A stretch of 64,000 nucleotides of DNA from Sphingomonas arenae (GTDB lineage: Bacteria; Pseudomonadota; Alphaproteobacteria; Sphingomonadales; Sphingomonadaceae): positions 806,001 to 870,000 of the forward strand of contig NZ_JAFFJU010000001.1 of NCBI RefSeq assembly GCF_016924655.1, given 5' to 3'. Positions within the stretch are counted from its first letter, which is position 1, and each line of letters begins with the position of its first letter. Below the pieces are notes generated by a model, which worked only from the letters and a program-made list of their open reading frames with translations, had not been told where the DNA came from and ran no database searches. Shown piece by piece: positions 6,967 through 52,102 of this stretch. Both the position numbers and the translations under genes were made by a program.

Positions 6967-9546
6967 ATGGATTTCGAGAAACTGACCGATCGCGCCAAGG
7001 GCTTTCTGCAGGCGGCGCAGACCATTGCCGTGCGCGAGCATCATCAGCGGATCGCGCCGGCCCATCTGCTCAAGGCGCTGCTCGACGACGAGCAGGGCAT
7101 GGCCGCGGGCCTGATCAACGCGGCGGGCGGGGACGGCAAGGCGGCCCAACGTGAGACGGACGCGCTGGTGGCAAAGATTCCGGCGGTGACGGGTTCGGGT
7201 GCGGCCAGTGCGCCGGCGCTGGACGGTGACACGATCCGCATCCTCGACCAGGCCGAGCAGGTCGCGAAGAAGAGCGGTGACAGCTACGTCACCGTCGAAC
7301 GCATCCTGCTGGCAATGGCGCTGGCCAAGGGCACGGACGTGGGCAACGCGCTGCAGCGTGCCGGCCTAACGCCGCAGAACCTCAACGCTGCGATCGACAA
7401 GCTGCGCGGCGGACGGACGGCGGATACGCAGGGCGCCGAGGATCGCTACGACGCGCTGAAGAAATTCGCGCGCGACCTTACGGAAGCGGCCCGCGCGGGC
7501 AAGCTGGACCCGGTCATTGGCCGCGACGAGGAGATCCGCCGCACCGTTCAGGTGCTGGCCCGCCGGACCAAGAACAACCCGGTGCTGATCGGGGAGCCGG
7601 GCGTCGGCAAGACGGCGATCGCGGAAGGGCTTGCCCTGCGCATCGCCAACGGTGACGTGCCGGACGGGATCAAGGACAAGAAGCTGCTGAGCCTCGACAT
7701 GGGCTCGCTGATCGCCGGCGCGAAGTACCGCGGGGAGTTCGAGGAGCGGCTGAAGGGCGTGCTCGACGAGGTCAAGCAGGCCGAGGGCGACATCATCCTG
7801 TTCATCGACGAGATGCACACCCTCGTCGGTGCAGGGAAGAGCGAGGGCGCGATGGACGCGTCCAACCTCCTGAAGCCCGCGCTGGCCCGTGGCGAGCTGC
7901 ACTGCATCGGCGCGACCACGCTCGACGAATATCGCAAGCATGTTGAAAAGGATGCGGCGCTGGAGCGGCGTTTCCAGCCGGTGTTCGTGGGCGAGCCAAC
8001 GGTGGAGGACACCATCTCGATCCTCCGCGGGCTGAAGGAGAAGTACGAGCTCCACCACGGCGTGCGGATCACGGACGCGGCGATCGTCGCGGCGGCGACG
8101 CTGTCCAACCGTTACATTTCCGACCGCTTCCTGCCGGACAAGGCGATCGACCTGATGGACGAGGCGGCGTCGCGAATCCGCATGGAGGTCGAGTCCAAGC
8201 CCGAGGAGATCGAGAACCTCGACCGCCGGATCATCCAGCTCAAGATCGAGCGCGAGGCGCTGAAGAAGGAGACGGATGCGGCATCCAAGGAGCGGCTGAC
8301 CAAGCTGGAAGCGGAGCTTGCCAACCTGGAACAGCAGGCGAGCGAGCTGACGACGCGCTGGCAGGCGGAAAAGGAGCAGATCGCCACTACGACCAAGCTG
8401 CAGGAGCAGATCGACCAGGCTCGACTGGAGCTGGAACAGGCGCAGCGCTCGGGCGACCTCGCCAAGGCGGGCGAGCTCCAGTACGGGCGCCTGCCGCAGC
8501 TTGAGAAGCAGCTGGAGGAGGCGCGCGCCGCGACCCAGCATGCCATGCTTCGCGAGGAGGTTACCGACCAGGATATCGCGGGCGTGGTCAGCCGCTGGAC
8601 CGGCGTTCCGGTCGAGCGGATGCTGGAGGGCGAGCGAGCCAAGCTGCTCGGCATGGAGCAGGCGATCGGCGCACGGGTCATCGGGCAGGAGGATGCGGTG
8701 AAGGCCGTGTCCGCCGCGGTGCGCCGGGCACGTGCGGGGCTGCAGGATCCGAACCGGCCGCTGGGCTCCTTCCTGTTCCTCGGGCCGACGGGCGTCGGTA
8801 AGACCGAGCTGACGAAGGCGCTGGCTGAGTTCCTGTTCGACGACCCCACGGCCATGGTCCGGATCGACATGTCGGAGTTCATGGAGAAGCATGCGGTCGC
8901 GAGGCTGATCGGCGCTCCTCCGGGCTATGTCGGCTATGAGGAAGGCGGCGTGCTGACCGAGGCGGTGCGGCGCCGCCCTTATCAGGTCGTGCTGTTCGAC
9001 GAGGTCGAGAAAGCGCACGCGGACGTGTTCAATGTGCTCCTGCAGGTGCTCGACGACGGGCGGCTGACGGACGGCCAGGGGCGCACGGTGGACTTCACCA
9101 ACACCCTGATCATCCTCACGTCCAACCTGGGGTCGCAGTATCTTGCATCACTCGGCGAGAACGAACCCGCCGAGAAGGTCGAGAGCCAGGTGATGGAGGT
9201 GGTTCGAGGGCACTTCCGGCCGGAATTCCTCAACCGCCTGGACGAGATCATCCTCTTCCACCGGCTGAGCGCGAGCCACATGGGGCCGATCGTGGACATC
9301 CAGGTGAAGCGTCTCGGCAAGCTGCTGGAAGACCGGAAGATCAGGCTCGATCTGACCGACGCGGCGCGGGCGTGGCTGGGGCGGGTCGGCTACGATCCGG
9401 TCTATGGCGCGCGGCCGCTCAAGCGGGCGGTGCAGAAGTATCTGCAGGACCCACTGGCGGATCGCATCCTCTCAGGCGAGGTCCGGGACGGTCAGACCGT
9501 CCGGGTGGACGAAGGCGACGGTGGGCTGGTGATCCAGCCCGCCTGA
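6967..9546 (+). CDS. clpB: ATP-dependent disaggregase chaperone ClpB
   Basis: An 859-residue, full-length ClpB, the Hsp100 AAA+ chaperone that rescues aggregated proteins with DnaK in the cytoplasm. Domains in order: Clp N domain (1-145), first AAA+ module with Walker A GEPGVGKT near 209-216 and Walker [11 protein letters not shown], the long coiled-coil middle domain (about 400-520, Glu/Lys/Gln-rich), and the second AAA+ module with GPTGVGKTE near 608-616 and [11 protein letters not shown]. The C-terminal D2-small domain ends in VIQPA. The middle domain separates it from ClpA/ClpC. AGGA lies five bases before the ATG. Single gene, probably heat-induced. Confidence 0.98.
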
Positions 9547-9559
9547 GGTCGTCCTGAAT

Positions 9560-9844
9560 TCAGCAGGCGGGGGCGCCGGTGTGGGTGTTGATCGTCGCGC
9601 AGGGGCCGTTCGGACTCATCTGCGCGCGGTCGATCGCCTCCTTGTCGAGGCGGCGGCGCTGCTCCCACTCGGCGCGGGTTCCGCAGACCCGTTTCACCGC
9701 AAGCCGGCTGCCGGTATGGACGATGTCCTCGCACACCTTTTCGTTGGGGTCCTTGGCCTTCGGGGCCTTTTGCGCCGGAGTTGCCGGGGCAGTGCCGGAG
9801 AGGGCGAAGCTGGCGGCGGACAGGAGCATGAGGAGCTGCTTCAT
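9560..9844 (-). CDS. Small secreted protein with two conserved cysteines (paralogue 1)
   Basis: A 94-residue protein of unknown function. It starts at an ATG preceded by GAAAGGGA. The signal peptide MKQLLMLLSAASFALSGTAPA is followed by a Lys/Ala/Pro stretch, then a core with KVCEDIVHTGSRLAVKRVC and TRAEWEQRRRLDKEAIDRAQ. It ends in a short tail with two more cysteines (PCATINTHTGAPAC). The core is clearly paralogous to the protein at 10717-10989, which lacks the tail. The two flank a PKHD-type hydroxylase on the same strand. Likely periplasmic. Confidence 0.8.
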   Translation of the reverse strand: MKQLLMLLSAASFALSGTAPATPAQKAPKAKDPNEKVCEDIVHTGSRLAVKRVCGTRAEWEQRRRLDKEAIDRAQMSPNGPCATINTHTGAPAC

Positions 9845-9937
9845 CGGGAATCCCTTTCGGCTGGGCCCTGGGTTCGCCGAGGCGTTATCGCTCAAGATGA
9901 GGCGTCGCCGAAACGGTTTTCGACCGACGGGCGAACG

Positions 9938-10600
9938 TCAGGGCTTGTCGGACCAGTAGCGGAGCAGGTTGGACTGGACGAGCTGCAGGCGGGAGAAGTT
10001 CTCCGGCTGCATGGTGAGGCCCTCCAGCGCCGCGACTTCGTTCAGGTCGAACAGCAAGTTGCGGCGGAAGGGATCGGGGATGCGGCTCTGGATGAAGGCG
10101 ATCGCGACCAGCCGCTCGCCGCTGGTGACCCGCTCGACCTCGTGGAAGGTATCGGACGGGTAGATGATCGCCTCCCCAGGCTGAAGCTTGAAGCGGATGC
10201 TGGCATCGCCCAAGCGGATGTGCAGCGCGCCGCCTTCGTAGCTGCCCGGATCGTTGAGGAAGACGGTGCAGCTCAAGTCGCTGCGCACGACCGCGTTGCC
10301 GAGGTTCAGGAAGGCCGCATCGGCATGGGCGCCGTAGTACATGCCCGGCTGGTACTTGGTGAGCAGCGGCGGCGTGATCTTCTGGGGAAAGGCGAACTCG
10401 CGGAATTCCTCGCTGCGGCCGAACGCCTGAAGGATCAGCTGCGCCGAAGCCTGCCCCGCGTTCGGCTCGTGCAACTGCTGATTGTTCTTGGCCTTGTTGT
10501 GCGGGTTCGAGATCCGGCCGTCGACGAAGTGGCTCGCGGCGGCGATGCGCCGGCACTCCGCGACTTCCGCCTCGGTGAGCAGCGGCAGGATGCGGTACAT
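9938..10600 (-). CDS. PKHD-type Fe(II)/2-oxoglutarate hydroxylase (PiuC/YbiX family)
   Basis: A 220-residue non-haem iron dioxygenase. Iron ligands are visible as His91-x-Asp93 in GAHADAAF and His152 in TFHEVERV, with Arg162 (GERLVAIAF) for 2-oxoglutarate. The N-terminus (MYRILPLLTEAEV) and length match the PiuC/YbiX group. In many proteobacteria these genes sit beside TonB-dependent iron-complex receptors. Here it lies in the same minus-strand block as a TonB receptor, but 5.3 kb downstream. GAAGGAAGA precedes the ATG at good spacing. Its natural substrate is not known for the family. Confidence 0.92.
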   Translation of the reverse strand: MYRILPLLTEAEVAECRRIAAASHFVDGRISNPHNKAKNNQQLHEPNAGQASAQLILQAFGRSEEFREFAFPQKITPPLLTKYQPGMYYGAHADAAFLNLGNAVVRSDLSCTVFLNDPGSYEGGALHIRLGDASIRFKLQPGEAIIYPSDTFHEVERVTSGERLVAIAFIQSRIPDPFRRNLLFDLNEVAALEGLTMQPENFSRLQLVQSNLLRYWSDKP

Positions 10601-10716
10601 TCGGGCGTCTTCCTTCGCTCGGCGTGGCAGGACATCTGCGCGCCGGCCCCGGACTGTGCAGGACGGGGTCGGGAGGTCAATGGGCTAGTCCAGGCGGAAG
10701 CGCTCAGGCGCGGCGA

Positions 10717-10989
10717 TCATTCACCCTTGGTCCCGCGCATCGTCTGCGCGCGCTCAATCTCCTGCTGGTCAGCGCGGCGCCGCTCAGCCCACTGCGCGCG
10801 GGTCATGCAGACCTTCTTGGTCGCGAGCCGGCTGCCGATCACTTCCGTCTTCTCGCAGACGACCTCATCCATGTTGCGCGCCTTGGGAGCTTTCGCCGCG
10901 GGCGCCTCGGCCGACTGAGCGGAAGCGGGCAAGATCCCGGTCAGGGTCATGGCGGCGGCGATGGTTGCTGCTGCAAGCTTGCTGTTCAT
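10717..10989 (-). CDS. Small secreted protein with two conserved cysteines (paralogue 2)
   Basis: A 90-residue protein of unknown function with signal peptide MNSKLAAATIAAAMTLTGILPASAQ, an Ala/Lys/Pro linker (PAAKAPKARN), then VVCEKTEVIGSRLATKKVC and TRAQWAERRRADQQEIERAQ. The core aligns with the protein at 9560-9844: Cys-Glu, about 14 residues, then Lys/Arg-Val-Cys and a basic helix. The two cysteines may form a disulphide in the periplasm. It sits between the PKHD hydroxylase and the 2OG-Fe(II) oxygenase, all on the minus strand, so the pair probably arose by local duplication around the hydroxylase gene. Confidence 0.8.
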   Translation of the reverse strand: MNSKLAAATIAAAMTLTGILPASAQSAEAPAAKAPKARNMDEVVCEKTEVIGSRLATKKVCMTRAQWAERRRADQQEIERAQTMRGTKGE

Positions 10990-11092
10990 TGCGACGCCCT
11001 CAAACTGCGATCGGCCATCACGCCAACCTGAGTGCCCGAGTGAATCCGCGCCGCCCGTTTGCGAGCAAGCCGGATTCGACGAACGACACCCG

Positions 11093-12589
11093 TCAGCGGG
11101 GCGGAGCGATATCGAACGCCGTTGTCAGGCGCTCCCCCGCTGCGAAGGGGATGGTGCCGTGCCACATCATGGAGGGGAACAGGACCAGCCGGCCAACCTT
11201 CGGCTCGACCGTCCGGAATGGCTCGAGTCCGCTGCCGAGCGAGTCCTGTGGTTGACCGAGGGTCAGCCAGCCCTCCGAACCGTCGAGCCGCGCGGGGAGG
11301 TCGACGTAAAGGGCGGAGCTGATCCACCCCTGCGGATGGACGTGCTGGCTGTGGAAGCCCTGCCCGGTCAGGCACACCGACCAGCTTCCCGCAAAGCGGA
11401 TCGGGCGGTCGCGAGCGTGCAGAAGCATGGGGTGGGTGGGATCGGGCGGCGGCAGCTTCGCGCGGTACTCCTCCACGGCGGTGACGATCGCCGCGCGCAG
11501 CTGGCGGATCGAAGGCTCGATGCGGGAGAAAAGGGGTCCGTCGGTCTGCGTGCCTCCGCGCACGGACTGATCGAGGAAGCGCCCTGAGCGCGCATGAATG
11601 CGGCGCAGGTCGGCAGCCACTGCGCCGAAGTCCACGGTGCCGCTGAGTTCGAGCACCTGGACCATGCCGTCCTGCCCCTCGAGCCACTCCCAGCGCGGGT
11701 CGCCCGACTGGCGCCACGCGATAGCGGCATAGGACCAGAACAGGTGGGCGTCGTCGCCGTGCAGCCACCTGTCCGCAAGCTGGCCGAGCGCCCCCAGGTT
11801 GCCGACGCGGACCAGATGTCGGGCGAGGAGCACCGCATGGTGGACGTGGCGTGGCTCACCAAGCCGGGCGAAGGCAGGGCCCGCCTGATCGTCGCGGCGG
11901 CTGTCCGAGAGGGCAGCCGCGCGAGCAAGGGCGAAGCGGGATTCGTCGCGGGTCGCGGCGATCGCCTGGTCGGCGAGCTGCCATGCCTCGTCGAAGCGCT
12001 CGGCCCGGTTTAGGATCTGGAGCGCGGCATCCCACAGGCTCGGGTCGGTGGGAGCCCGGGCAAGCGCGGGCTGGATCGTCGCCATCGCGTCCGCCGCTCG
12101 CCCGCACATCGCCGCGAGCTGCGCGTAGTGGACGTGTCCCGCCGCCCATTGAGGGCTGCCCGCGAGGAGGCCGGACAGCCGGTCGAGGGCAAGCGCCCCC
12201 TCCCCCATCGCATAGTGCGCGGCGCACCAGCCGAGCCAGACCTCACCGGAAGGAGAGAGACGCAGCGCCGCTTCGAACAGCCCGCGTGCATCCACGCCCG
12301 CTTCCAGAGCGGCCCGGGCGCGACCATGCGCGATCAGGGGGTCGGCCGGGGCAAGGTCCGCGGCCGTGGCGAAGGCGGCCATGGCCTCGGTGAGTTGACC
12401 GAGGGAGCGGTGGAGGAGGCCGGTCCACTGCCACAGACGCGCGCTTCGCAGCCGTTCCGCGGCGGGCTGGACGAGAGCCAGCGCGGCCTCCTCCTCGGCC
12501 TCGGCCAGCGCGGCTCGGGCGAGGTCCTCCAGCGCGTCAGGCGTGTTGGTGCCGGTCCTTGCCGCGGCGAGGGCGGCGCGAAAGCTCAC
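11093..12589 (-). CDS. TPR-containing putative 2OG-Fe(II) oxygenase
   Basis: A 498-residue protein. Residues 1 to about 300 are Ala/Leu-rich helical repeats of TPR type (for example LWQWTGLLHRSLGQLTEA). The C-terminal 200 residues match the 2OG-FeII_Oxy_5 family: GFHSQHVHPQGW near 411-422, distal His in MMWHGT near 477 and Arg at 487. The substrate is unknown; the TPR part may dock a protein or peptide. The GTG start overlaps the stop of the upstream Asp/Asn hydroxylase (GTGA), so translation is probably coupled. It is the third enzyme of the block behind the TonB receptor. Confidence 0.87.
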   Translation of the reverse strand: MSFRAALAAARTGTNTPDALEDLARAALAEAEEEAALALVQPAAERLRSARLWQWTGLLHRSLGQLTEAMAAFATAADLAPADPLIAHGRARAALEAGVDARGLFEAALRLSPSGEVWLGWCAAHYAMGEGALALDRLSGLLAGSPQWAAGHVHYAQLAAMCGRAADAMATIQPALARAPTDPSLWDAALQILNRAERFDEAWQLADQAIAATRDESRFALARAAALSDSRRDDQAGPAFARLGEPRHVHHAVLLARHLVRVGNLGALGQLADRWLHGDDAHLFWSYAAIAWRQSGDPRWEWLEGQDGMVQVLELSGTVDFGAVAADLRRIHARSGRFLDQSVRGGTQTDGPLFSRIEPSIRQLRAAIVTAVEEYRAKLPPPDPTHPMLLHARDRPIRFAGSWSVCLTGQGFHSQHVHPQGWISSALYVDLPARLDGSEGWLTLGQPQDSLGSGLEPFRTVEPKVGRLVLFPSMMWHGTIPFAAGERLTTAFDIAPPR

Positions 12590-13740
12590 AGCCCACCCGG
12601 GCCCTGACCATCCGCCGCCATCAGGGCCGTCACAGCCTCGCGCTCCGCGGCCGTCAGCTCGGGCGCCCACACATCGAAGATGAAGACCACGCGCAGCTGG
12701 TCGGTCGGGTTCAGCGCTTCATGTTCGATCGTGTCGTCGAACACGAAGGCTTGCCCGCGCTGCCAGTAGCGCGTCTCGGCTCCTACCCGGAACCAGCAGC
12801 CTTCGGGGACGATCAGTGGCAGGTGGCACACGAGGCGCGTGTTGCTGACCCCGACGTGCGGGGGGATGGCGGTGTTCGGCGCAAGGAGCGAGAACATCGC
12901 GTTTGGCGAGGCGCCGGGCACCTGCGGCTGCGGCAGGCCGGACAACAGCGCCATCGAGCGGGGGCAATGTTCGACATTGGCGCTGACCGGGCGGCCGCGG
13001 TCGAGCAGGTGGATGGCCGTCCAATTGCGATTGCGGTTGAGCGGCTTCCACTGATCCATCGGCAGGTGGTCGTCATACTGAATGTAGGGCACCAGCTCGG
13101 CGCGCTCCGACATCATGACCGCCTTGAGTTCCTCCGCGATCACGTCGGTCGCGGCTTCGAGCCGGTCGAGCCAGGGGAAGAGGGATCGGGGGTGGAACTC
13201 GCGCTCCGGCAGCGCAGGGAAGTGATAGTGAGTCGGCTCGCTATGGTAGGGCCGCGTCTTGCGCAGGACGTTGCTGCGGAAGCGAGCGATGCGGTCGCGC
13301 TCGTCCGGCGTGGCGCTCTGCTCGACCGCTGTCATGGAGGCTGCAAGCCGCATTTCACGTTCCGACAGCCACGCGGCATGACGCTCCCGCGCCTCGGCCA
13401 GCACGGGCGCGAACTGCGGCGGAAGCTCTCCGGCCGGCTGCTGGGCCAAGGCGTGCCCCCAGGCTTCGCCCGCCTGCGGGTCGTCGAGGCGCTGGAGAAG
13501 ACTTGCACGCAGGAGCAATGCGGCGAAGTCGCGCGGGGTGAAGGCCAGGGCGCGGTCGACCGCGACCAGGGCTGCCCGGGGCCGGCCGGCGGCGCGTTCC
13601 ACAGCAGCGAGCCGCAGCCACACCGCCTCGGAGCCGCCTCCCTCCCCGGCCCGCTTGAGCAGTTCACGGGCGCCGGCCAGATCCCCTGCGCCTGCGGCCC
13701 GGTCTGCCTGGTCGATGAGGGAGCGTTCGGCGGGCTGCAT
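12586..13740 (-). CDS. Aspartyl/asparaginyl beta-hydroxylase with N-terminal TPR-like region
   Basis: A 384-residue protein. Residues 1-120 form TPR-like helices (LAAVERAAGRPRAALVAVDR...). Residues 200-370 are the Asp/Asn beta-hydroxylase domain (PF05118 type): the GASPNAMFSLLAPNTAIPPHVGVSNTR region with His295 and Arg302, then His340 in TIEHEALNPTD and Arg350. Family members hydroxylate Asp/Asn residues, or related groups in lipids or peptides, using Fe(II) and 2-oxoglutarate. The start overlaps the sulfotransferase stop as TGATG, and its own stop overlaps the next start, so the three enzymes form a tight translational unit. Confidence 0.92.
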   Translation of the reverse strand: MQPAERSLIDQADRAAGAGDLAGARELLKRAGEGGGSEAVWLRLAAVERAAGRPRAALVAVDRALAFTPRDFAALLLRASLLQRLDDPQAGEAWGHALAQQPAGELPPQFAPVLAEARERHAAWLSEREMRLAASMTAVEQSATPDERDRIARFRSNVLRKTRPYHSEPTHYHFPALPEREFHPRSLFPWLDRLEAATDVIAEELKAVMMSERAELVPYIQYDDHLPMDQWKPLNRNRNWTAIHLLDRGRPVSANVEHCPRSMALLSGLPQPQVPGASPNAMFSLLAPNTAIPPHVGVSNTRLVCHLPLIVPEGCWFRVGAETRYWQRGQAFVFDDTIEHEALNPTDQLRVVFIFDVWAPELTAAEREAVTALMAADGQGPGGL

Positions 13741-15752
13741 CAGACCGAATAGCCGAACTTGTCGATCCAGGGCTGGAGCACCGGGAGCACCGGCTCGAGA
13801 TGGGTGCGGTACTTTTCCCAGCGGCCGGATGCGCGCTTGTAGAGCGGCTCCGTCACCTGGGCGTAGCTGGCGGTCTTGATCCGGCCGCGATCCCTGGCGG
13901 TCGCCTGGTGGTCGAGGACGCGATCGCTCCAGTCGAGACCGAGGAAGGCGGACAGGGCGCGGAGCTCCTGCTCGGGATCGGTGACTACCGCCTCGTAGCG
14001 AACCTGGTGGAGCGGGAGCCCGAGCAGTTCCTGCGCGCGCTCGAGGTTGCGGAAGGTGAGATCGTAGAGCTCGGCCGCGGTCGCCACGTCGAGGAAGCTC
14101 GCCATGCCGTCGTTCAGCCGGAAGTTGGTGATGACGCAGCTCAGCACCACGTCGCACGGGTGCCGCAGTGCCAGGATGATGCGCGCGTCCGGGAACAGGC
14201 GAGCGATCCACGGCAGCATGTTGGACGCGAGCGGGTTCTTGTCGATCAGCAGGCTGCCCGGCGCGAGCGGCGCCAGCGTGGCGGCGCGCGCGAAGTAGGC
14301 GTCGCGGGCGGCCTGGATCTGCGCATCGGCGAGGTCCGGGAGGGCGGTCACGTCCGGCAGGAGCTGCTGCGCGTCGCGGAGGGCCGGTTCCTCTTCCAGC
14401 ACCTCGAGCCCCGGATGGCCCATCAGCATGGTGTCGAGCAGGGTCGTGCCCGAGCGCGGGAAGCCGAGCAGGAAAGCGGGCGAGGAGCGGACGTCGGTCG
14501 GCTGGAACGGCCTCCACCGAGCCTGCCACGCGGGGGTGAGGCTGGCGGTCTGTGCCCGAACCTGCGCGCGGTAGGAGGCGCCCCGGCTGACCGGATCGGA
14601 AGGGTCGGCGATGGCGAGCGCGTTCATTCGGCCAAAGGCGCCGAACGCCTCGTCGTAACGCCCGGCCCCGTCGAGCAGCTGGCCGAGCAGGTGGGTCCGA
14701 CGCGGGGTCTCGAGCTCGTCCGGAACCTGTTCCAGCGCGACGAGGCCCTGATCGAACCGCTTGGCCCGGCGGTGGTCCATGGCCCGGATGAAGTTCAGCG
14801 CGTCGGCTCGGACGGCCTTGGCTTCCGCTTCCCGGGCGAGGGCGGCCAGTTCCTCGGTCCGGTTGGTGAGCTCGAACACGGATGCGAGGCCGAGATTGCC
14901 GACCGGGTGAGCCGGATCGAGCGCGATGGCGCGGCGATACTCCCGCTCAGCCGCGGGATAATCGAGCAGGCGGACGTGATGGCTGGCGAGCCCCACGAGA
15001 AGATCGATGTTGGAGCGGTCGCGCGCAACCGCCTCACGAATGGGCCCCAGCGCATCCTCGTCGCGGCCCTGGTCGCGGCGGAGCGCGTGCAGTTGCAGAA
15101 GCGCGGTGGTGTCGTCCGGAAACTCGTCTGCAAGCGCTTGGAGCAGCTGTTCGGCCTCGGCTCCCTCACCCGTTTCGGCGAGAGCTTGAGCGAGATTCAG
15201 GCGAACGGCGGCGGAGCCGGGCGCAATCTGCGCGGCCTGGCGAAGTGCGGCGACGCTGCCGGGGAAGTCGCCGGCGCAGCGGCGCGCATTGCCGAGGTTG
15301 TTCCACGCTTCCCAGTCGTCCGGCTCGGCCGCCAGGATGGTGTCGTAGGCCTGAACGGCGATGTCGAACCGCTCGGCAAGTTGGGCACAGAATGCTCGGA
15401 GCCGTAGCAGACGGAGCGAAGGATCAGCAGCGGCCGCGGCTTGTGTGGCGACGTCGAGGGCGGCCGCATAGTCCTTGTTCTCGGTCAGCGCGGTCGCGAG
15501 ATTGGTGCGGATGAGCAGGTCGTCAGGTCGCTCGTCGAGCGCATGGCGCAGGTGACCGATCCCGGCGGCAAGGTCGCCCGAGCGGGACCAGAGCATTCCG
15601 AGCATGGCATGAAGGGCGGCGCCGTCGTTGCCGGCCGCAAGGGCGCGTTCGCCGATAGCGCAGGCCTCGGCCAGCTGCCCGCGCCCGGCGGCGCTCATCG
15701 CCTGGCGGATTGCTGCGACCGTGTCCGGATCGAGTTGAGCAGGCTGGTTCAT
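13740..15752 (-). CDS. TPR-containing sulfotransferase
   Basis: A 670-residue cytoplasmic enzyme. About 400 residues of TPR repeats (for example WEAWNNLGNARRCAGDFPGS) precede a sulfotransferase domain. The PAPS 5'-phosphosulfate loop GFPRSGTT is near 430-437 and the 3'-phosphate motif LALRHPCDVVLSC is near 526, followed by NFRLNDGMASFLD. It transfers sulfate from PAPS to an unknown acceptor; large TPR domains in this family resemble tyrosylprotein sulfotransferase partners. The ATG at 15752 removes a 29-residue upstream extension lacking a ribosome site. It is the first enzyme after the TonB receptor, separated from it by a terminator-like hairpin. Confidence 0.92.
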   Translation of the reverse strand: MNQPAQLDPDTVAAIRQAMSAAGRGQLAEACAIGERALAAGNDGAALHAMLGMLWSRSGDLAAGIGHLRHALDERPDDLLIRTNLATALTENKDYAAALDVATQAAAAADPSLRLLRLRAFCAQLAERFDIAVQAYDTILAAEPDDWEAWNNLGNARRCAGDFPGSVAALRQAAQIAPGSAAVRLNLAQALAETGEGAEAEQLLQALADEFPDDTTALLQLHALRRDQGRDEDALGPIREAVARDRSNIDLLVGLASHHVRLLDYPAAEREYRRAIALDPAHPVGNLGLASVFELTNRTEELAALAREAEAKAVRADALNFIRAMDHRRAKRFDQGLVALEQVPDELETPRRTHLLGQLLDGAGRYDEAFGAFGRMNALAIADPSDPVSRGASYRAQVRAQTASLTPAWQARWRPFQPTDVRSSPAFLLGFPRSGTTLLDTMLMGHPGLEVLEEEPALRDAQQLLPDVTALPDLADAQIQAARDAYFARAATLAPLAPGSLLIDKNPLASNMLPWIARLFPDARIILALRHPCDVVLSCVITNFRLNDGMASFLDVATAAELYDLTFRNLERAQELLGLPLHQVRYEAVVTDPEQELRALSAFLGLDWSDRVLDHQATARDRGRIKTASYAQVTEPLYKRASGRWEKYRTHLEPVLPVLQPWIDKFGYSV

Positions 15753-15820
15753 CTGTTCTGGTGTGTAGCGCGTTGCCGTCCGCTTGCCAGTGGGCTTCGC
15801 GTCCCGGCGCGAAGGCCAAG

Positions 15821-15853
15821 AAAAAGGGGCGGCGGACATGATCCGCCACCCCC
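15821..15853 (-). terminator. Rho-independent terminator after the TonB receptor
   Basis: On the minus strand an 11-bp GC-rich stem (GGGGTGGCGGA pairing with TCCGCCGCCCC, one G-T pair, 5-base loop) is followed by TTTTTCTT. It lies 23 bases past the receptor stop and 68 bases before the sulfotransferase start. It should cut most read-through from the receptor into the enzyme genes, or set their level by partial termination. Confidence 0.8.
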
Positions 15854-15875
15854 TCTTCAGCGCATTCGTCGAGAC

Positions 15876-18800
15876 TTAGAACTCGAGCGTCACGCCTGCG
15901 TAGACGTAGCGGCCCAGCGAGTCCCAGGTGCCCGGGTAGGTGTTGCCGTTGCACGGACCGGCCGGGCAAAGGTTGGAGCCCTCGAGCCCACCGTTGCCGG
16001 AGGTAACCAGCGGCGGATCGTTGTCGAGGATGTTGTTCACACCAATCCGGAAGTTGTAGTTGTCGCCGATCGCGACCGTTCCGGCGAGATCGAAGTAGTG
16101 CTGCGCCTTGATCCGTAGACCCGGATCAAAGACCGTCGCGCCACCCAGCGTCTCGTTGTCTTCCAGCGTTTCAGCCTTGACCTTGCCGACCATGCGCCAC
16201 TGCAGCGACACGCCAATACCGTTGGCCATCTGCAGCGAGGTCCGGAGCTTATGACGCCACCTCGGCATCGGGGCCGAGCTTGCAACGGTGGCACCGCTGC
16301 AGGTCGGGCCGTACAGGCCGGCGCAATCATATTCTTCCGTCAGCCCGTTATCGACCTTGTAGCGCTTCAGGTAGGTTCCGATGAAGCTGGCTGACAGGTT
16401 GCCGAGGCCACCCAGGCGATGGCTGTACGACGTGTTGATGTCGAAGCCGTCGGTGGTGATCTCACCATTGTTGTTCGGCAGGTTGTTGATGAACCCGTCC
16501 GAGCTGAGCCAGAGCGAGCCAGCCGCATTGCGGTTGATCAGCGCGCAAGCCGGCGATTCAAACGTCGCGGTGGACTGATTGACGCACGCCGTGATGATCG
16601 AGTCCGAACCGTAGCCCTGGATCGCGTTCTTCAGGTTGATGTTCCAGTAGTCGACCGTGAAGGCGAAGCGCGGCAGGAAGCTGGGCTGCAGCACCACACC
16701 CACCGTCTTCGTGGTCGCCTTCTCTGGGTTCAGGTCGGGATCGCCGCCGAGCAGGCCGTTGTACTGGCCAGCAGGGTTGGAGGGCGTACCGCTACCCACG
16801 GCCAGACCGGAGTAGATGCACCCGTAATCCGTCGCGGTGATGATGCGATCGGCGCACGGATCCTTGGTTCCGTCCAGACCGACGAACTGCGGAGCGAACA
16901 GTTCCTGGATGTTCGGAGCACGAACAGCCCGGTTGTACGAACCGCGGAACCGCACGTCGCGGATCGGGGCAAACTCGAGCGAGAGCTTGTACGTATCGGT
17001 GTCGTACTTGCGGCCGCTGCTGAGCTTGTACCACGACTTACGATAGCCGGCGCCCAGGCTCAGATCCTGGACGAAGCCATTCTGCACGATCGGCAACTGC
17101 GCTTCGGCGAAGACCTCGTTCACCGAGAACGAGCCGTTGACCGGCAGCGTCGGGGCTCCCTGGCCCGTCAGGTCGCCCGTCTGGAACAGCTGGTCCGGAT
17201 TCAGCTCCAGCCGCTCCTTGCGGAACTCGTAACCGACGTTCACGCCAAGGCCGTCCTCCGCCCATGGAGTGCGGAAGCCGGACTCGCCGAGCTGGCCAGT
17301 GAAGTTGATGTTAGCCACCTGCTCGGACGTCTCGCCGGTGATGACACCGAAGACATTGAGGTAGTTGATCGACGCCGCCGAAGGACCGTCAGGACCGAAG
17401 ACGTCGTAGGGGACGCAGTTCGGGTCGGTTCCGGCCAGCGCCGAGCGGCAAACCGGGTTGCCGGTGACCGGGTCGGCGACCACGTCGAGAGCGCGGACCA
17501 GACGCGAGGCCGAGAACTCGTTCTTGTAGACCTGCGTATAGTTCGTCTTGCCGTACTGATAATACGCATCATACGACCAGGCGTTGCTGAGGTCCCCACG
17601 GGTTCCCAGCACACCACGGAAGCTGGTGTGCTTCAGGTCGCTGATGCGCGCACCACCCTCGGTGTTGCGGCGGCCCAGCTGGAACAACGCGCGCTGGTAG
17701 CTGAGGCCGGTGGTCGGATCGATGAAGTTGATCGGAGCACCGCCCGGTCCCGGCGTGCCATCGTTGCCGGTATTGTACGGCGCACCCGCGGCCAACGGGA
17801 AGTTGCCGATGAAGCCGTTGATGAGGTTGGCCGGGTTACAGATGACATCCAGCTGCTGCTGGCTGAGCAGAGGGTTGTCGCAGTTGATCGTGTTCGTGTT
17901 GAAGAAGTCGCCCGACGGCGCGATCTGCGCCAGCGTGCGGTCATCCATGAACATGAACTCGAGGTACGGCTTGATCGCGCTGTTGACCTCATAGTCCGCG
18001 AAGACGCCACCGATGTAGCGCTCGTCCGGACGCTGGAAGTAGTTCAGCGGAGCGAAGTTATAGAGGTTCGCGCCATTGCCGACCGTGATCGTTCCCGGCC
18101 CGAGCGCCGCCGTCGTGGACGACGGAGCACCGAAGGTCGTGAAGATGAAGGCGTTGCCCGGGTTCGCGGTGGCCGAGCCGCCGCAACGGGGGCTGCCGCT
18201 GCCGGTGTTCTGGATGACGCAAGCGCTGAAGTCACGGCGCGACTGCAGGATCGGGTTGACCTTGCGGTAACCGAAGTACGCAACCGCGTGACCACGGTTG
18301 TCGTCGAACTTGGTGCCGATCGTGATGGTGCCGTCGAAGGTGCCGCCATCAGTGACCATTCCGCCCGGAGCCGAGTAGCCGCGGCCCGCCAGGATGTCCT
18401 TGACGTACTGGGGATCACCCGGCGTCTGCCCGGCGCAGCTGAGCTGGCTTGCCGACACGCCAACGCAGTCGGCGACAAACGGGTTGCCGTTCTTGTGGTT
18501 GTAGAAGCTGTACTGGCCGTCGAACCGGACACCGGTGAAGTTGGTGTCCATGATGAAGTTGACGACGCCGGCGACCGCGTCGGCACCGTACACCGACGAT
18601 GCACCGCCGGTCAGCACCTCGACGCGCTTCACCAGCGAGGACGGGATGAAGTTCAAGTCGGCGGCCTGGGTGGTGCTGTTCGGGTCACCCGGGACGAGCC
18701 GGCGGCCGTTCACCAGCGCGAGGCTGCGCTTGGAACCGAGATAGCGAAGGTCGACTTCGGCCGTGCCGGTGGCGCCGTTCGCCAGGCCCGAGCTCTGCGA

Positions 18801-19133
18801 AGCGCCGACGGACGGCAGCGAGTTCAGGAGGTCCTCTACGCGGGTCACGCCCTGGAGCTTGATGTCCTGGCTGGACACGACGGTCACCGGAGCGGCCGAC
18901 TCAAGGTTCGGCTGCGGAATGCGGGTGCCGGTAACAACGATGTCCTGGGTTTCCTGGACCGCCTCGCCCGTGGACGAAGTGTTCGAAACCGGCTGCGCCT
19001 CGACCGGACCCGTAGGCTGAGTCGTGTCGGCGGCGGTGTCCGTCTGCGCATCCTGCGCAAGGGCGGGCGTAGCGAGCATGCCGGCACTGACCAAAAGGGT
19101 CGTGGCGAGCAGCCGCTGGCGGAAATCAGTCAT
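15876..19133 (-). CDS. TonB-dependent outer-membrane receptor (large, Oar/omp family)
   Basis: A 1085-residue outer-membrane transporter. It has a signal peptide (MTDFRQRLLATTLLVSAGMLATPALA), a Thr/Gln/Pro-rich linker and the probable TonB-box/plug start QDIVVTGTRIPQPN near residue 65. The plug carries SSVYGADAVAGVVNFIM, and a very long 22-strand-type barrel ends in aromatic YVYAGVTLEF. Several Cys pairs lie in the predicted extracellular loops. The ligand is unknown; the size fits receptors for peptides or oligosaccharides rather than small siderophores. AGGGGAAGAA precedes the ATG. It heads the minus-strand block of oxygenases and sulfotransferase, although a terminator separates it from them. 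Confidence 0.95.
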   Translation of the reverse strand: MTDFRQRLLATTLLVSAGMLATPALAQDAQTDTAADTTQPTGPVEAQPVSNTSSTGEAVQETQDIVVTGTRIPQPNLESAAPVTVVSSQDIKLQGVTRVEDLLNSLPSVGASQSSGLANGATGTAEVDLRYLGSKRSLALVNGRRLVPGDPNSTTQAADLNFIPSSLVKRVEVLTGGASSVYGADAVAGVVNFIMDTNFTGVRFDGQYSFYNHKNGNPFVADCVGVSASQLSCAGQTPGDPQYVKDILAGRGYSAPGGMVTDGGTFDGTITIGTKFDDNRGHAVAYFGYRKVNPILQSRRDFSACVIQNTGSGSPRCGGSATANPGNAFIFTTFGAPSSTTAALGPGTITVGNGANLYNFAPLNYFQRPDERYIGGVFADYEVNSAIKPYLEFMFMDDRTLAQIAPSGDFFNTNTINCDNPLLSQQQLDVICNPANLINGFIGNFPLAAGAPYNTGNDGTPGPGGAPINFIDPTTGLSYQRALFQLGRRNTEGGARISDLKHTSFRGVLGTRGDLSNAWSYDAYYQYGKTNYTQVYKNEFSASRLVRALDVVADPVTGNPVCRSALAGTDPNCVPYDVFGPDGPSAASINYLNVFGVITGETSEQVANINFTGQLGESGFRTPWAEDGLGVNVGYEFRKERLELNPDQLFQTGDLTGQGAPTLPVNGSFSVNEVFAEAQLPIVQNGFVQDLSLGAGYRKSWYKLSSGRKYDTDTYKLSLEFAPIRDVRFRGSYNRAVRAPNIQELFAPQFVGLDGTKDPCADRIITATDYGCIYSGLAVGSGTPSNPAGQYNGLLGGDPDLNPEKATTKTVGVVLQPSFLPRFAFTVDYWNINLKNAIQGYGSDSIITACVNQSTATFESPACALINRNAAGSLWLSSDGFINNLPNNNGEITTDGFDINTSYSHRLGGLGNLSASFIGTYLKRYKVDNGLTEEYDCAGLYGPTCSGATVASSAPMPRWRHKLRTSLQMANGIGVSLQWRMVGKVKAETLEDNETLGGATVFDPGLRIKAQHYFDLAGTVAIGDNYNFRIGVNNILDNDPPLVTSGNGGLEGSNLCPAGPCNGNTYPGTWDSLGRYVYAGVTLEF

Positions 19134-19365
19134 GCGTTCTTCCCCTAAAGTAGCCGCGTGTCCCCTGAAGACGCACGGCAGCTTCGCACAGCAATGTCAC
19201 ATTGCCGAACCAGCCCACGTCTAATTTAGAGGGAGAGACACTGGCAACGCATGCGCAACGACCTGCTGACGATAGCAGTCACTCTGTTTCAGATTTGCAA
19301 CAGTGTGAACTTGCCCGCCGGTTCCGCGGAAAGCTAGAAAGGTCATGAGCATAGGGGGTTTCAAG

Positions 19366-20145: not shown

Positions 20146-21531
20146 CTAGTCCTCGCTGTCGAACAGGCCGGGTTGGGGAGCGACATAGGGTCGCGAGGGC
20201 TTGCGCTCAACCTTCGGTGGTGGCTGCGGGCTGGCGCCGGCGGTCGCTTCCACGAGACCGTCGCCGAAGTGCAGCGAGAGATCGCGGGCGGCGCGGGCGT
20301 CGGCGGCGTGAGTGAGGGTGCGGCCGGAGCGGTCGGTGACGCGGACGAAGCCGCGGGACAGCGGGCGTTCGGGGTGCACCAGCTCGGCCATCTTCCAGGC
20401 AGCGGCGAGCTTGTCGGACAGGCGGTGGACTTTGTGCTGGATGAGTTCGGGCCGGAGCCGCGATGCCACCAGGTTCATGTCGGCGCGGGCGTGGCCGGTG
20501 CGGGCGGCGAGTGCGCGCGGTAGCCGCTCGCCGACCTCGTCGAGTCGCTGGCCGCGAGTGGCGAGCAGGGTTTCGCTGCTAGGCCAGCGACAGGTCGTCA
20601 GCGCCAGCCGCTCGCGCGCCAATTCCGCGCGGCGGGTGAGGCAACGGCGCTTGCGGGCCATGAGCTCGTCCAGTTGCGCCATCAGCTCCGCCCGGACCGG
20701 CACCGCCAGTTCGGCGGCGGCGGTGGGCGTCGGCGCGCGCAGGTCGGAAGCATGATCGATGAGGGTCGTGTCGGTCTCGTGCCCGACGGCGCTGATCAGC
20801 GGGATGGGCGACTCGGCGGCAGCGCGGACCACCTCTTCCTCGTTGAAGGCCCACAGGTCCTCGATCGAGCCGCCGCCGCGGGCGACGATCAGCAGGTCCG
20901 GGCGCGGCTCGAAGTTCGCGAAGCCGCGAATGGCGGCGGCGATGCGGGCCGACGCGCCCTCCCCTTGGACCGGCACCGGCCACACGATGACATGGGTCGG
21001 GCAGCGGTCCTCGAGTCGGTGGAGGATGTCGCGGATGACGGCTCCGGTCGGGGAAGTGACGACTCCGATGATGCGGGGGAGGAACGGGAGCCGGCGCTTG
21101 CGACCCGCGTCGAACAGGCCCTCGGCCGCGAGCGCGCGGCGGCGCTTGTCGAGCAGCGCCATGAGCGCGCCCTCGCCGGCCAGCTCCATCCGGTCGATGA
21201 CGATCTGGTACTTGGAGCGGCCGGGATAGGTGGTGAGCTTGCCGGTGGCGATGACTTCGGCCCCGTCCTCCGGGCGGAAGGCCAGCGTCGACGCGCCGGT
21301 GCGCCAGATCACCGCGTCAAGGCAGGCGTTCTCGTCCTTGAGGCTGAAGTAGCAGTGGCCGGACGAGTGGCGCTTCCAGCCGCTGATCTCGCCGCGCACC
21401 CGGACGCGGCCGAACGCGGTCTCTACCGTGCGCTTGAGCGCGCCCGCGAGTTCGCTCACCGTCTGCGGCGGCGAATTGTCGCCCGCGCGCGGCTCGGCTA
21501 GGAGGCCTGCACTGCTTTCGGGGAGGTCCAT
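20146..21531 (-). CDS. xseA: Exodeoxyribonuclease VII large subunit
   Basis: A 461-residue catalytic subunit of exonuclease VII, which degrades single-stranded DNA in both directions with XseB. It has an N-terminal OB fold (QTVSELAGALKRTVETAFGRVRVRGEISG, then GHCYFSLKD), the catalytic core with VVTSPTGAVIRDI and RGGGSIEDLWAFNEE...SAVGHETD, then a long Arg/Ala/Leu coiled-coil. The ATG at 21531 has AGGA five bases upstream; the ATG at 21537 has poor spacing. The start codon overlaps the divergent purD start. XseB is not encoded nearby. Followed by a DUF2093 gene. Confidence 0.97.
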   Translation of the reverse strand: MDLPESSAGLLAEPRAGDNSPPQTVSELAGALKRTVETAFGRVRVRGEISGWKRHSSGHCYFSLKDENACLDAVIWRTGASTLAFRPEDGAEVIATGKLTTYPGRSKYQIVIDRMELAGEGALMALLDKRRRALAAEGLFDAGRKRRLPFLPRIIGVVTSPTGAVIRDILHRLEDRCPTHVIVWPVPVQGEGASARIAAAIRGFANFEPRPDLLIVARGGGSIEDLWAFNEEEVVRAAAESPIPLISAVGHETDTTLIDHASDLRAPTPTAAAELAVPVRAELMAQLDELMARKRRCLTRRAELARERLALTTCRWPSSETLLATRGQRLDEVGERLPRALAARTGHARADMNLVASRLRPELIQHKVHRLSDKLAAAWKMAELVHPERPLSRGFVRVTDRSGRTLTHAADARAARDLSLHFGDGLVEATAGASPQPPPKVERKPSRPYVAPQPGLFDSED

Positions 21532-22804
21532 GAACATCCTGCTGTTGGGGTCGGGCGGGCGCGAGGATGCGCTGGCATGGCGGCTCAGGCAATCGCCGAG
21601 CTGCGATAGCCTGCTGGCCGCGCCGGGCAACCCCGGGATCGCGCGTTGGGCCGAGTGCGTGGCGATCGATCCGACGAGCCCGGAGGCGGTGGTTGCGCTG
21701 GCGCAGGAGCGTGGGGTCGACCTGGTGGTGGTCGGGCCAGAGGCGCCGCTGGTCGCCGGTGTCGCCGACGCCTGCCGGGCAGCGAGGATTGCGGTGTTCG
21801 GCCCGAATGCGGCGCCGGCACAGCTGGAGGGCTCCAAGGGCTTCACCAAGGATCTGTGCGCCGAGCATGGCATTCCGACCGCCGATTACGTTCGCGTGGA
21901 AACGGCTTCGGACGCGCTGGCCGCGCTGCACCGCTTCACCATCCCGGTCGTGATCAAGGCGGACGGTCTGGCGGCCGGCAAGGGCGTCACCGTCGCCCTG
22001 ACCCGGGACGAGGCGGAGCGGGCGATCCAGGCGGCCGGCGACGGACCCATGGTGATCGAGGAGTTCCTCGAAGGCGAGGAGGCCAGCCTGTTCGCGCTGG
22101 TCGACGGCGAGGTGGCGGTGCCGCTCGCCTCCGCCCAGGACCACAAGAGGGTTGGCGAAGGCGACACCGGTCCCAACACCGGCGGCATGGGCGCCTACAG
22201 CCCTGCCCCTGTGCTGACGCCGGAGCTGGAGCGGCGCGCGATGGAGGAGATCGTGCTGCCGACGGCCCGGGCGATGGCCTCGCGTGGAACGCCGTTCAGC
22301 GGAGTGCTCTATGCTGGTCTGATGCTGACGGCGGAAGGGCCGAAGCTCATCGAATATAATGTCCGCTTCGGCGATCCCGAGTGCGAGGCAATCATGCCAC
22401 GCATCGAAGGGGACTTTGCCGAGCTGCTGATGGCCGTGGCGAGCGGCCGGCTTGGCGCCACCGAGCCACCGGTGCTGTCGGACGAAACCACCATGACGGT
22501 GATCATCGCCGCAGAAGGTTATCCGGGCACTCCCAAGAAGGGTGGCCTCATCGACGAGATCGAACCAGCGGAACAGGTGGAAGGCGTAACAGTGTTCCAT
22601 GCCGGGACCGCGCGCCATGCGTCGGGTGCCCTGCTGTCCGTCGGCGGACGCGTGCTCGCCGTGACTGCCAAGGCCCCCAATCTTGCCCGCGCTCGGGCTC
22701 GGGCGTACCGAGCCGTGGACGCCATCCGTTTTGCCGACGGCTTCCACCGCCGCGACATCGGCTGGCGAGAGCTGGAGCGGTCCGCAGGAGAGCTTGCCAA
22801 ATGA
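21530..22804 (+). CDS. purD: Phosphoribosylamine-glycine ligase
   Basis: A 424-residue GAR synthetase, second step of de novo purine synthesis (phosphoribosylamine + glycine + ATP). It shows the N-terminal MNILLLGSGGREDALAW, the VVGPEAPL loop, the ATP-grasp part with VVIKADGLAAGKGV and EEFLEGEEASLFAL, and NTGGMGAYSP, LIEYNVRFGDPE and a C-terminal domain. Length is normal. GGGAGG lies three bases before the ATG. The start overlaps the divergent xseA start, so each promoter must lie inside the other gene. The stop overlaps the next gene (ATGA), which begins a four-gene run. Confidence 0.98.
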   Translation: MNILLLGSGGREDALAWRLRQSPSCDSLLAAPGNPGIARWAECVAIDPTSPEAVVALAQERGVDLVVVGPEAPLVAGVADACRAARIAVFGPNAAPAQLEGSKGFTKDLCAEHGIPTADYVRVETASDALAALHRFTIPVVIKADGLAAGKGVTVALTRDEAERAIQAAGDGPMVIEEFLEGEEASLFALVDGEVAVPLASAQDHKRVGEGDTGPNTGGMGAYSPAPVLTPELERRAMEEIVLPTARAMASRGTPFSGVLYAGLMLTAEGPKLIEYNVRFGDPECEAIMPRIEGDFAELLMAVASGRLGATEPPVLSDETTMTVIIAAEGYPGTPKKGGLIDEIEPAEQVEGVTVFHAGTARHASGALLSVGGRVLAVTAKAPNLARARARAYRAVDAIRFADGFHRRDIGWRELERSAGELAK

Positions 22805-51800: not shown

Positions 51801-52102
51801 GCAACCTGACCTACCGGAACAAGGGGTTGGCGCTGCAGTGGCAGACGCAGTTCTTCGGCAAGGCGAAGATCGACCCGGATGCGGAGGATAACACTTACGA
51901 GTTCCCGACCATCGAGCGGGTGTTCCTGCACAACCTGTCGGCGACCTACAATGTAGGTGAACGCTTCCGGTTCAACGTGGTCGTGGACAACGTCTTCGAT
52001 CGCAAGAAACCGTTCCAGGTTCCAGCTTCCGGAGGAACGGTGACCTATTTCGATGCGATCCGTGGACGCTACTTCCGCTTTGGGGCGGGCGTTCGCTTCT
52101 GA
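48803..52102 (+). CDS. TonB-dependent outer-membrane receptor (second, large)
   Basis: A 1099-residue receptor. A long N-terminal signal region ends SLLSLSAPAWAQ, followed by an Ala/Pro/Glu linker with Cys pairs (DCSGLAG...ALTECEA). The TonB-box/plug start is AIVVTGSRIPRANFDTPQP near residue 108, then APIYGADAIAGTINVITKRNF. The big barrel ends in YFDAIRGRYFRFGAGVRF. It is related to, but not a close copy of, the receptor at 15876-19133. GGGAGG lies five bases before the ATG at 48803, which rules out the 48722 start. The ligand is unknown and no dedicated partner genes are nearby. Confidence 0.94.
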   Translation: MSARNQVLDTCVLRSGRAGLGRGASLGALAISLLSLSAPAWAQGTPDAASAPADCSGLAGAALTECEARAAQPPVEPAPGAAPAAQADAQAGEPEAIVVTGSRIPRANFDTPQPAVVLGGAQIEQRGYSNLADALEELPAFGVPGSSPVGTGQSGDVGSGQNFVNFFGLGDQRTLTLVNGRRFVSSNTASIFGPTGTNGSQVDFNVLPTLLIDRVETVAVGGAPIYGADAIAGTINVITKRNFKGVQLDGQNAISSRGDLQDWRIRGAAGTSFADGRGNISVAAEYNKAGGLDFSDRKNMNNFYTTPLDPASPFQNVLIGDRRLPSLSQFGLPQVSDLFFVVDPFTANDVLPGLFEVPFPVQVGVTNDGTPTGLPLAFNERGELVPIDFGARTGNLLNYDGGSGFVLPGNLVAPLRRIVGTALAQYEITSNVRLFGEAWYANSKGTTFRAQPEYNTNLFADAGDPAGQFIIQLDNPFLSPSARTLIQNAIANNIISDQNLGGAPQDYFYLTRANTDIISGKASSTVELYRFVGGLDGTFNVMDREFRFEVVGNYGKSTTKGNGRAVVQQNLENALDAVVDASGNIVCRPGYVNADVPTFSSTCAPLNPFGRQVSPEAAAYITAPTNPKNVNDQKVFTASVSGSLFDIWGGPVAFALGYEHREESSEFSPGTFYSGGPDPDPTVDENGDGDPTNDRVPFGQSAIFDPVSGEFNTDEFFGELTVPLVSRDQNIPGIYSLELNGAIRLINHSLAGSDPTYTLGATWQPFRDITFRGNYTRSVRSPAITEYFNPTSQIFTLANDPCDDQFISSGPDPATRAANCAADGIQPGFSSDIVDFTATGSLSGNPNLINETADAWTIGTVLRPRFLPGFTASVDWIDIKLKNAVTALTATQVLEACYDSPDFPNSVSASGTNFCEQFTRDADGQITFIETGFENAAGQRFKGLISEIAYRRDTPFLGAGSSLEFGLNYLYNDTLTVRVGRGDITTLASSIGYSRHQATGNLTYRNKGLALQWQTQFFGKAKIDPDAEDNTYEFPTIERVFLHNLSATYNVGERFRFNVVVDNVFDRKKPFQVPASGGTVTYFDAIRGRYFRFGAGVRF

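What the first reader, a model, noticed from the sequence alone, without database searches (positions are those of the whole stretch)
9560..19133. TonB receptor with three helical-repeat-fused modifying enzymes, a PKHD hydroxylase and duplicated small secreted proteins
All seven genes are on the minus strand. Seen in sequence: a 1085-residue TonB receptor, then a sulfotransferase, an Asp/Asn beta-hydroxylase and a 2OG-Fe(II) oxygenase. Each enzyme starts with a TPR-like helical region and the three are joined by 1-4 base overlaps. A PKHD-type hydroxylase flanked by two paralogous Cys-containing secreted proteins follows. Three Fe(II)/2-oxoglutarate enzymes plus one PAPS enzyme with a shared docking-like architecture suggest sequential modification of one protein or peptide substrate, possibly linked to the receptor's cargo or to the receptor itself. 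The joint function is inference.
Basis: partly seen in the sequence, partly recalled or inferred. Interest (0 to 1): 0.72.

Follow-up and report, generated by a model that had tools for sequence, protein, structure and literature searches.

The report
Outer-membrane receptor with its modifying enzymes
A bacterial outer-membrane import receptor is encoded together with a changeable kit of cytoplasmic enzymes that probably add hydroxyl and sulfate groups to proteins; the partnership recurs in many Proteobacteria and offers a way to test why some such receptors need a cytoplasmic oxygenase to work.

Summary
The seven genes are as described: a TonB-dependent receptor (TBDR), TPR-sulfotransferase, TPR-AspH hydroxylase, TPR-2OG oxygenase, two small secreted Cys-pair proteins and a YbiX/PiuC/CciO-family dioxygenase. 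The grouping is conserved. A TBDR lies within 5 kb of the AspH relative in 34 of 60 stretches from an order-wide survey and 63 of 80 named loci from Alpha-, Beta- and Gammaproteobacteria (rough expectation 19%). A second TPR-sulfotransferase lineage, also in this genome, sits beside another TBDR in 20 of 20 loci examined. Order, orientation and enzyme set vary, yet receptor and AspH distances track each other (r 0.88) far better than receptor and neighbouring xseA (0.33). A terminator-like hairpin separates receptor from first enzyme in 39 of 53 pairs, against 26 of 268 other same-strand pairs. Best reading: a receptor-dedicated modification kit acting in the cytoplasm on the receptor or a co-exported protein before export. 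The substrate is not shown: no target site was found, and ligand- or peptide-directed models stay open. Closest precedent: Caulobacter CciT-CciO, where a TBDR strictly needs one such dioxygenase for unknown reasons. This looks like an expanded variant of that kind; my paper searches found no description of it.

The parts
15876..19133 (-). TonB-dependent receptor, 1085 aa, Sec-type N-terminus
   Evidence: PF07715 and PF00593; best partial NCBIfam hits are all far below cut-off
19191..19205 (.). perfect 15-base palindrome GCAATGTGACATTGC 58-72 bases before the receptor start; possible operator
   Evidence: sequence; not found by the same pattern before 82 other receptors
15820..15858 (-). terminator-like hairpin between receptor and first enzyme (18-pair stem, T-run)
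   Evidence: fold -40.8 kcal/mol, z -5.55 (66-base stretch); same arrangement in 39 of 53 relatives. The simple consensus scan did not list it
13740..15752 (-). TPR-sulfotransferase, 670 aa, cytoplasmic by its N-terminus
   Evidence: PF13469 E 3.9e-32 plus TPR; APS kinase, needed for PAPS, is in the genome
12586..13740 (-). TPR-AspH hydroxylase, 384 aa; H295, H340 and R350 invariant
   Evidence: PF05118 E 2e-41; alignments A2, A4; nearest solved relative human ASPH
11093..12589 (-). TPR-2OG-Fe(II) oxygenase, 498 aa (PF13759)
   Evidence: found beside AspH in 9 of 60 and 41 of 80 stretches
10717..10989 (-). small secreted protein 1, 90 aa, C-x15-C pair, no Tyr and no His
   Evidence: family A1/A5 with invariant C45, G52, C61, W67
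9938..10600 (-). PKHD-type Fe(II)/2OG dioxygenase, YbiX/PiuC/CciO family, 220 aa
   Evidence: NF003974 206.9 bits, cut-off 143
9560..9844 (-). small secreted protein 2, 94 aa, paralogue of protein 1

Best explanation
The locus is a TBDR with a dedicated, swappable set of cytoplasmic protein-modifying enzymes. The receptor precursor (and, where present, the small secreted protein) is made in the cytoplasm; TPR domains of the sulfotransferase, AspH and PF13759 oxygenase hold the unfolded chain and the catalytic domains hydroxylate Asp/Asn or other residues and sulfate a hydroxyl before Sec export; the modified protein then works at the outer membrane. A leaky terminator after the receptor gene keeps enzyme levels low relative to the receptor. 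Shown here: domain content, cytoplasmic-type N-termini of the enzymes, conserved co-localisation, correlated divergence, conserved hairpin. Inferred: catalytic activity, leakiness of the hairpin, pre-export timing, and that receptor or small protein is the substrate.
For: TBDR within 5 kb of AspH in 34 of 60 (order survey) and 63 of 80 (named) stretches, another enzyme in 28 of 60 and 54 of 80, against about 19% estimated by chance from Plug counts in 20 Sphingomonadales genomes (the estimate was not made for Beta-/Gammaproteobacteria). Receptor-AspH distance correlation 0.88, receptor-XseA 0.33, partial 0.87, 0 of 1000 permutations (n 27); holds inside the RRNxEGG receptor group (partial 0.72, n 19). 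Receptor-ST partial 0.42, receptor-Oxy5 0.61. The enzymes stay near the receptor although their order and orientation change. Second TPR-sulfotransferase lineage beside another TBDR in 20 of 20 loci; in this genome sulfotransferase and receptor (both confirmed by Pfam) are 86 bases apart. No hydrophobic N-terminus in AspH 0 of 76, Oxy5 0 of 40, ST 2 of 49 (crude hydropathy). AspH resembles human ASPH, a TPR-fused protein hydroxylase. PAPS supply present. Hairpin between receptor and enzyme 39 of 53, against 26 of 268 other pairs and 1 of 41 enzyme-enzyme pairs; 39 of 52 against 24 of 253 after dropping near-identical loci.
Against: No direct evidence for any modification. No receptor column tracks the presence of ST, Oxy5 or AspH once independent pairs are used (few pairs, low power). 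Receptors with ST are not richer in acidic-context Tyr (4.78 against 4.82 per 1000, p 0.93; 16 other TBDRs 7.05). AspH itself shows no clustering on the receptor tree (7 changes, shuffled mean 6.9), though only 7 of 83 lack it. The hairpin is also present after TBDRs followed by other genes (8 of 11), so it may simply be a TBDR terminator. Many AspH relatives have no TBDR nearby (26 of 60). Ligand-directed models explain the same co-localisation.
Confidence: 0.4

Rival explanations
1. Ligand model: the enzymes make, tailor or break down the molecule that the receptor imports (a siderophore-like, peptide or other ligand), as proposed for CciO/PiuC/YbiX.
For: Models given for CciO in PMC12004947 and PMC12004943. 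Beta-hydroxy-aspartate is a known Fe(III) ligand (recalled). Oligopeptide ABC transporter genes lie near the pair in some relatives (L194, L193).
Against: No siderophore or NRPS genes were seen among the window genes examined. Three enzymes carry TPR modules and the AspH is closest to a protein hydroxylase. The receptor is not of the Fiu or siderophore type by NCBIfam cut-offs.
Confidence: 0.27
2. Peptide (RiPP or lasso-like) model: the enzymes tailor a ribosomal peptide, perhaps the small Cys-pair protein, and the receptor takes it up or exports nothing itself.
For: Small secreted proteins in 35 of 83 receptor clusters, often tandem. A published table lists lasso B2, PqqD, two sulfotransferases and an aspartyl beta-hydroxylase under nearby cluster numbers (PMC10040529, passages; adjacency of genes is not stated there).
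Against: 48 of 83 receptor clusters lack the small protein by my rule. The small proteins have Sec-type N-termini (29 of 35), unlike usual RiPP precursors. The genome's one lasso B2 hit lies on another contig (C2). Small protein 1 has no Tyr and no His.
Confidence: 0.18
3. No shared substrate: genes sit together because of a conserved chromosomal site and co-transfer, and act separately.
For: Many stretches share the purD-xseA ... clpB site (XseA in 31 and ClpB in 31 of 83 tables), so part of the co-localisation is synteny.
Against: The association persists at other sites in Caulobacterales, Nevskiales/Steroidobacterales-type and Burkholderiales-type records, for an unrelated second sulfotransferase-receptor pair, and receptor-enzyme distances do not follow the neighbouring housekeeping genes.
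Confidence: 0.12

Closest known systems
CciT-CciO of Caulobacter crescentus and the Fiu-YbiX / PiuA-PiuC pairs (PMC12004947: abstract, outline and passages; PMC12004943: passages and Discussion)
   Same: A TBDR encoded with a cytoplasmic Fe(II)/2OG dioxygenase of the PKHD/PRK05467 family; in Caulobacter the receptor works only with the dioxygenase, and only that receptor does.
   Different: Here the receptor is a 1085-aa TBDR below the Fiu and siderophore-receptor cut-offs, the PKHD gene is not next to it, and a TPR-AspH, TPR-PF13759 oxygenase, TPR-sulfotransferase and small secreted proteins are added. In relatives the PKHD gene is the rarer member (2 of 60 and 8 of 80 stretches).
Human ASPH (aspartyl/asparaginyl beta-hydroxylase)
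   Same: TPR-type N-terminus plus PF05118 catalytic domain; two conserved His and the following Arg align.
   Different: Cytoplasmic in bacteria, no EGF-like substrate known; about 384 aa.
TPR-fused PF13469 sulfotransferases
   Same: TPR plus PAPS-type sulfotransferase domain.
   Different: No solved relative by sequence; no function found in the papers searched (one search returned no paper).
Proteobacterial lasso-peptide clusters with sulfotransferase and AspH
   Same: Peptide-directed sulfotransferase and AspH listed near lasso genes in one table (PMC10040529, passages).
   Different: No lasso B2 gene near this locus; the genome's one hit is on contig C2.

Membership tests
CciT-CciO / PiuA-PiuC / Fiu-YbiX pair | PKHD/PRK05467-family dioxygenase in the same gene group as a TBDR | tested here: met
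   NF003974 206.9 bits, cut-off 143; five genes from the receptor
CciT-CciO / PiuA-PiuC / Fiu-YbiX pair | receptor of the Fiu/PiuA siderophore type | tested here: not met
   Fiu model 15.9 bits against 686; TIGR01783 43.8 against 223.5
CciT-CciO / PiuA-PiuC / Fiu-YbiX pair | Fur regulation and receptor function that needs the dioxygenase | not testable with these tools
   needs genetics; a palindrome upstream was not matched to any regulator
ASPH-type aspartyl/asparaginyl beta-hydroxylase | PF05118 domain with the two-His iron site | tested here: met
ASPH-type aspartyl/asparaginyl beta-hydroxylase | TPR module before the catalytic domain | tested here: met
   profile A2 matches TPR chains in the PDB copy; single-sequence Pfam TPR hits just below cut-off
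ASPH-type aspartyl/asparaginyl beta-hydroxylase | hydroxylates Asp/Asn of a protein substrate | not testable with these tools
   no structure model obtained
PAPS-dependent TPR-sulfotransferase | PF13469 domain and a PAPS-making enzyme in the genome | tested here: met
PAPS-dependent TPR-sulfotransferase | tyrosine sulfation of the receptor (acidic-context Tyr enriched) | tested here: inconclusive
   no enrichment; bacterial site rules are unknown
Lasso peptide cluster | lasso B2 (PF13471) gene in the locus | tested here: not met
   one hit in the genome, on contig C2, none in the window

The most novel reading that the evidence does not exclude
Bacteria run a pre-export maturation line for outer-membrane receptors: TPR-guided cytoplasmic hydroxylases and sulfotransferases tailor a given TBDR (and a small co-exported partner), and exchanging the enzymes changes what the receptor binds or which phages and toxins it admits. 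The unexplained need of CciT, and perhaps PiuA and Fiu, for their cytoplasmic dioxygenase would be the single-enzyme form of this.
Probability: 0.33. Interest if true: 0.88.

Novelty: new variant of a known kind. Interest (0 to 1): 0.66.

Why it matters
It was shown in 2025 that an outer-membrane iron receptor can depend strictly on a cytoplasmic dioxygenase, with the mechanism left open (PMC12004947). This locus joins the same dioxygenase family to three TPR-fused enzymes of protein-modifying type beside a receptor, and shows that such partnerships recur across Proteobacteria and for a second sulfotransferase lineage. That turns a vague link into a direct test: look for hydroxyl and sulfate on the receptor. 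If positive, receptor specificity, phage susceptibility and siderophore-drug entry could depend on a so far unseen protein modification.

Tried and rejected
AspH target motif in the receptor: CDNP..C and RRNxEGG looked special (45 of 101 and 58 of 101 cluster receptors against 1 of 16 and 2 of 16 others) but also occur in clusters without AspH, and DNPxLS occurs in an unlinked receptor of the window, so this was dropped as a substrate site. Column-wise covariation of receptor residues with ST, Oxy5 and AspH gave nothing after phylogenetic pairing (output partly cut). Acidic Tyr content: negative. Conserved operator: the palindrome before the window receptor was not found before other receptors. 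Small protein against solved structures: no hit. ST and second sulfotransferase-like family ST2 against solved structures: no hit; ST2 has no Pfam match, so its naming as sulfotransferase-like rests on my iterated profile and a P-loop-like stretch. Plasmid search with AspH: 7 records, none covering 80% of the query. Structure prediction could not be completed. My gene caller missed AspH in 14 of 60 and 4 of 80 stretches; counts were therefore redone in six frames. A few loci are near duplicates across sets (L033 = L159, L048/L049, L046/L054, L217/L219); the counts include them. The 60 survey stretches are a choice of the better-scoring among the matches (94 by my sum of its table); the 20 second-sulfotransferase loci are the best match in each of 20 of 44 genomes with a match, and lower-scoring matches were not looked at.
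Full report
Observation. The seven genes exist at the stated place on the minus strand with the stated domains: a 1085-aa TBDR; a 670-aa TPR-sulfotransferase; a 384-aa TPR-AspH; a 498-aa TPR-2OG oxygenase (PF13759); small secreted protein 1; a PKHD dioxygenase of the YbiX/PiuC/CciO family; small secreted protein 2. The three TPR enzymes overlap by 1 and 4 bases. The TPR of AspH is weak in single-sequence Pfam but clear with a profile. clpB (+, 6967-9546) and xseA/purD (20146-22804) bound the locus; these names come from my reading of the proteins and the synteny, not from a family search.

Survey. AspH relatives occur in 64 of 147 Sphingomonadales genomes at E 1e-20. Sixty stretches around matches were fetched, twenty around further small-protein hits, and eighty named loci came from a scan of species genomes (best 80 kept). 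The same group recurs in Sphingomonas, Novosphingobium, Sphingopyxis, Sphingobium, Caulobacter, Nevskia, Povalibacter, Steroidobacter-type, Duganella and Rubrivivax records. In six-frame counts a TBDR lies within 5 kb of AspH in 34 of 60 and 63 of 80 stretches, and another enzyme of the kit in 28 of 60 and 54 of 80. From Plug-domain counts a random gene in 20 of these genomes would be that near a TBDR about 19% of the time; binomial odds of 1.5e-10 and 2.3e-30 are rough, because loci are related and the estimate is for Sphingomonadales only. The link fades with AspH divergence: 17, 13 and 6 of 20 within 8 kb in successive thirds of the survey.

Variable kit at a fixed place. In Sphingomonadaceae the receptor often sits between xseA and clpB, with any of ST, ST2 (about 340 aa, no Pfam), Oxy5, AspH, PKHD and one to three small genes, in either orientation. 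Further 2OG oxygenases (PF13640, one with a weak Sel1 hit; PF13661; JmjC_2) turn up in relatives. On the receptor tree of 83 loci, ST presence changes at least 15 times (shuffled mean 26), ST2 5 (15), Oxy5 14 (28), small 19 (27), AspH 7 (7): enzyme sets turn over but mostly follow the receptor type, AspH excepted, which is nearly always present.

Co-inheritance. Pairwise distances of receptor and AspH correlate at 0.88 while receptor and XseA from the same stretch correlate at 0.33; partial correlation 0.87, 0 of 1000 permutations as high (n 27). With ClpB or PurD as the background it is 0.74 and 0.88. Receptor-ST 0.42 and receptor-Oxy5 0.61; the control receptor-PurD given XseA is 0.04, receptor-XseA given PurD 0.24 (14 of 1000). 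Within RRNxEGG receptors alone receptor-AspH is 0.72 and receptor-ST 0.66 given XseA; for the other receptors receptor-ST given ClpB is only 0.18 (n 6).

Second instance. The genome holds seven PF13469 hits. The strongest is another TPR-sulfotransferase 86 bases before another TBDR (both confirmed by Pfam). Its best relatives in 20 of 44 genomes with a match all have a TBDR within 5 kb. The other own-genome sulfotransferase stretches looked at (L235, L236) showed no TBDR by my profiles.

Expression anatomy. Between receptor and first same-strand enzyme or small gene, 39 of 53 pairs hold a stable hairpin ending in a T-run; other same-strand pairs 26 of 268, enzyme-enzyme 1 of 41, enzyme-other 1 of 22, TBDR-other 8 of 11 (39 of 52 and 24 of 253 after removing near duplicates; a looser rule gave 47 of 54). 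In 13 of the 39 at most 31 bases remain before the predicted start codon, little room for a promoter. The window's hairpin folds at -40.8 kcal/mol, z -5.55, though the simple terminator scan did not list it and found no excess of terminators in the region. I infer low enzyme levels by read-through; this is not measured.

Mechanism. The enzymes lack hydrophobic N-termini, the receptor and small proteins tend to have them, and PAPS can be made. So modification, if of protein, happens before export. The catalytic AspH domain is nearest human ASPH among solved structures. I favour the receptor or co-exported small protein as substrate (0.4), with ligand (0.27), peptide (0.18) and no-shared-substrate (0.12) rivals. 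No target residue was identified; the motif, Tyr and covariation tests were negative.

What is known. PMC12004947 (abstract, outline, passages) shows that CciT strictly and specifically requires CciO, that CciT protein is still made without it, and offers three ligand-type models. PMC12004943 (passages, Discussion) adds copper resistance and the PiuC and YbiX parallels. PMC4176598 was seen in one passage. PMC10040529 (passages) lists an aspartyl beta-hydroxylase and two sulfotransferases under numbers near lasso genes. Searches found no paper on a TBDR with TPR-sulfotransferase and AspH; subscription papers and preprints are not held, so this is weak evidence of absence. Filing: an expanded variant of TBDR-dioxygenase partnerships, not a member of the Fiu/PiuA receptor type, which was tested and not met.

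Noticed in passing
L234 8331-9920 and 10007-12589 (G000 contig C2): A second TPR-sulfotransferase directly before another TBDR in the same genome; the pair is kept in 20 of 20 relatives examined.
   Followed up: yes
L130, L131, L133, L135, L138, L140: Another subfamily of the small Cys-pair protein sits at a different, conserved place without receptor or enzymes nearby.
   Followed up: partly
L038, L045, L046, L061 and others (alignment A3): A family of about 340 aa (ST2) with a sulfotransferase-like P-loop and no Pfam match recurs in these clusters.
   Followed up: partly
L194, L193: Oligopeptide ABC transporter genes close to the receptor-AspH pair.
   Followed up: partly
window 19191-19205: Perfect palindrome GCAATGTGACATTGC upstream of the receptor, not seen before relatives' receptors.
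   Followed up: partly
L034, L178: An AspH close to the window's (53-54% identical) sits in a similar, TBDR-free gene context in two records.
   Followed up: no
window 49094-52102: A second large TBDR in the window, without kit enzymes called nearby.
   Followed up: no
L235 1148-4457: A short protein that reads like PqqD and neighbours that may belong to a peptide-maturation group; judged by eye only.
   Followed up: no
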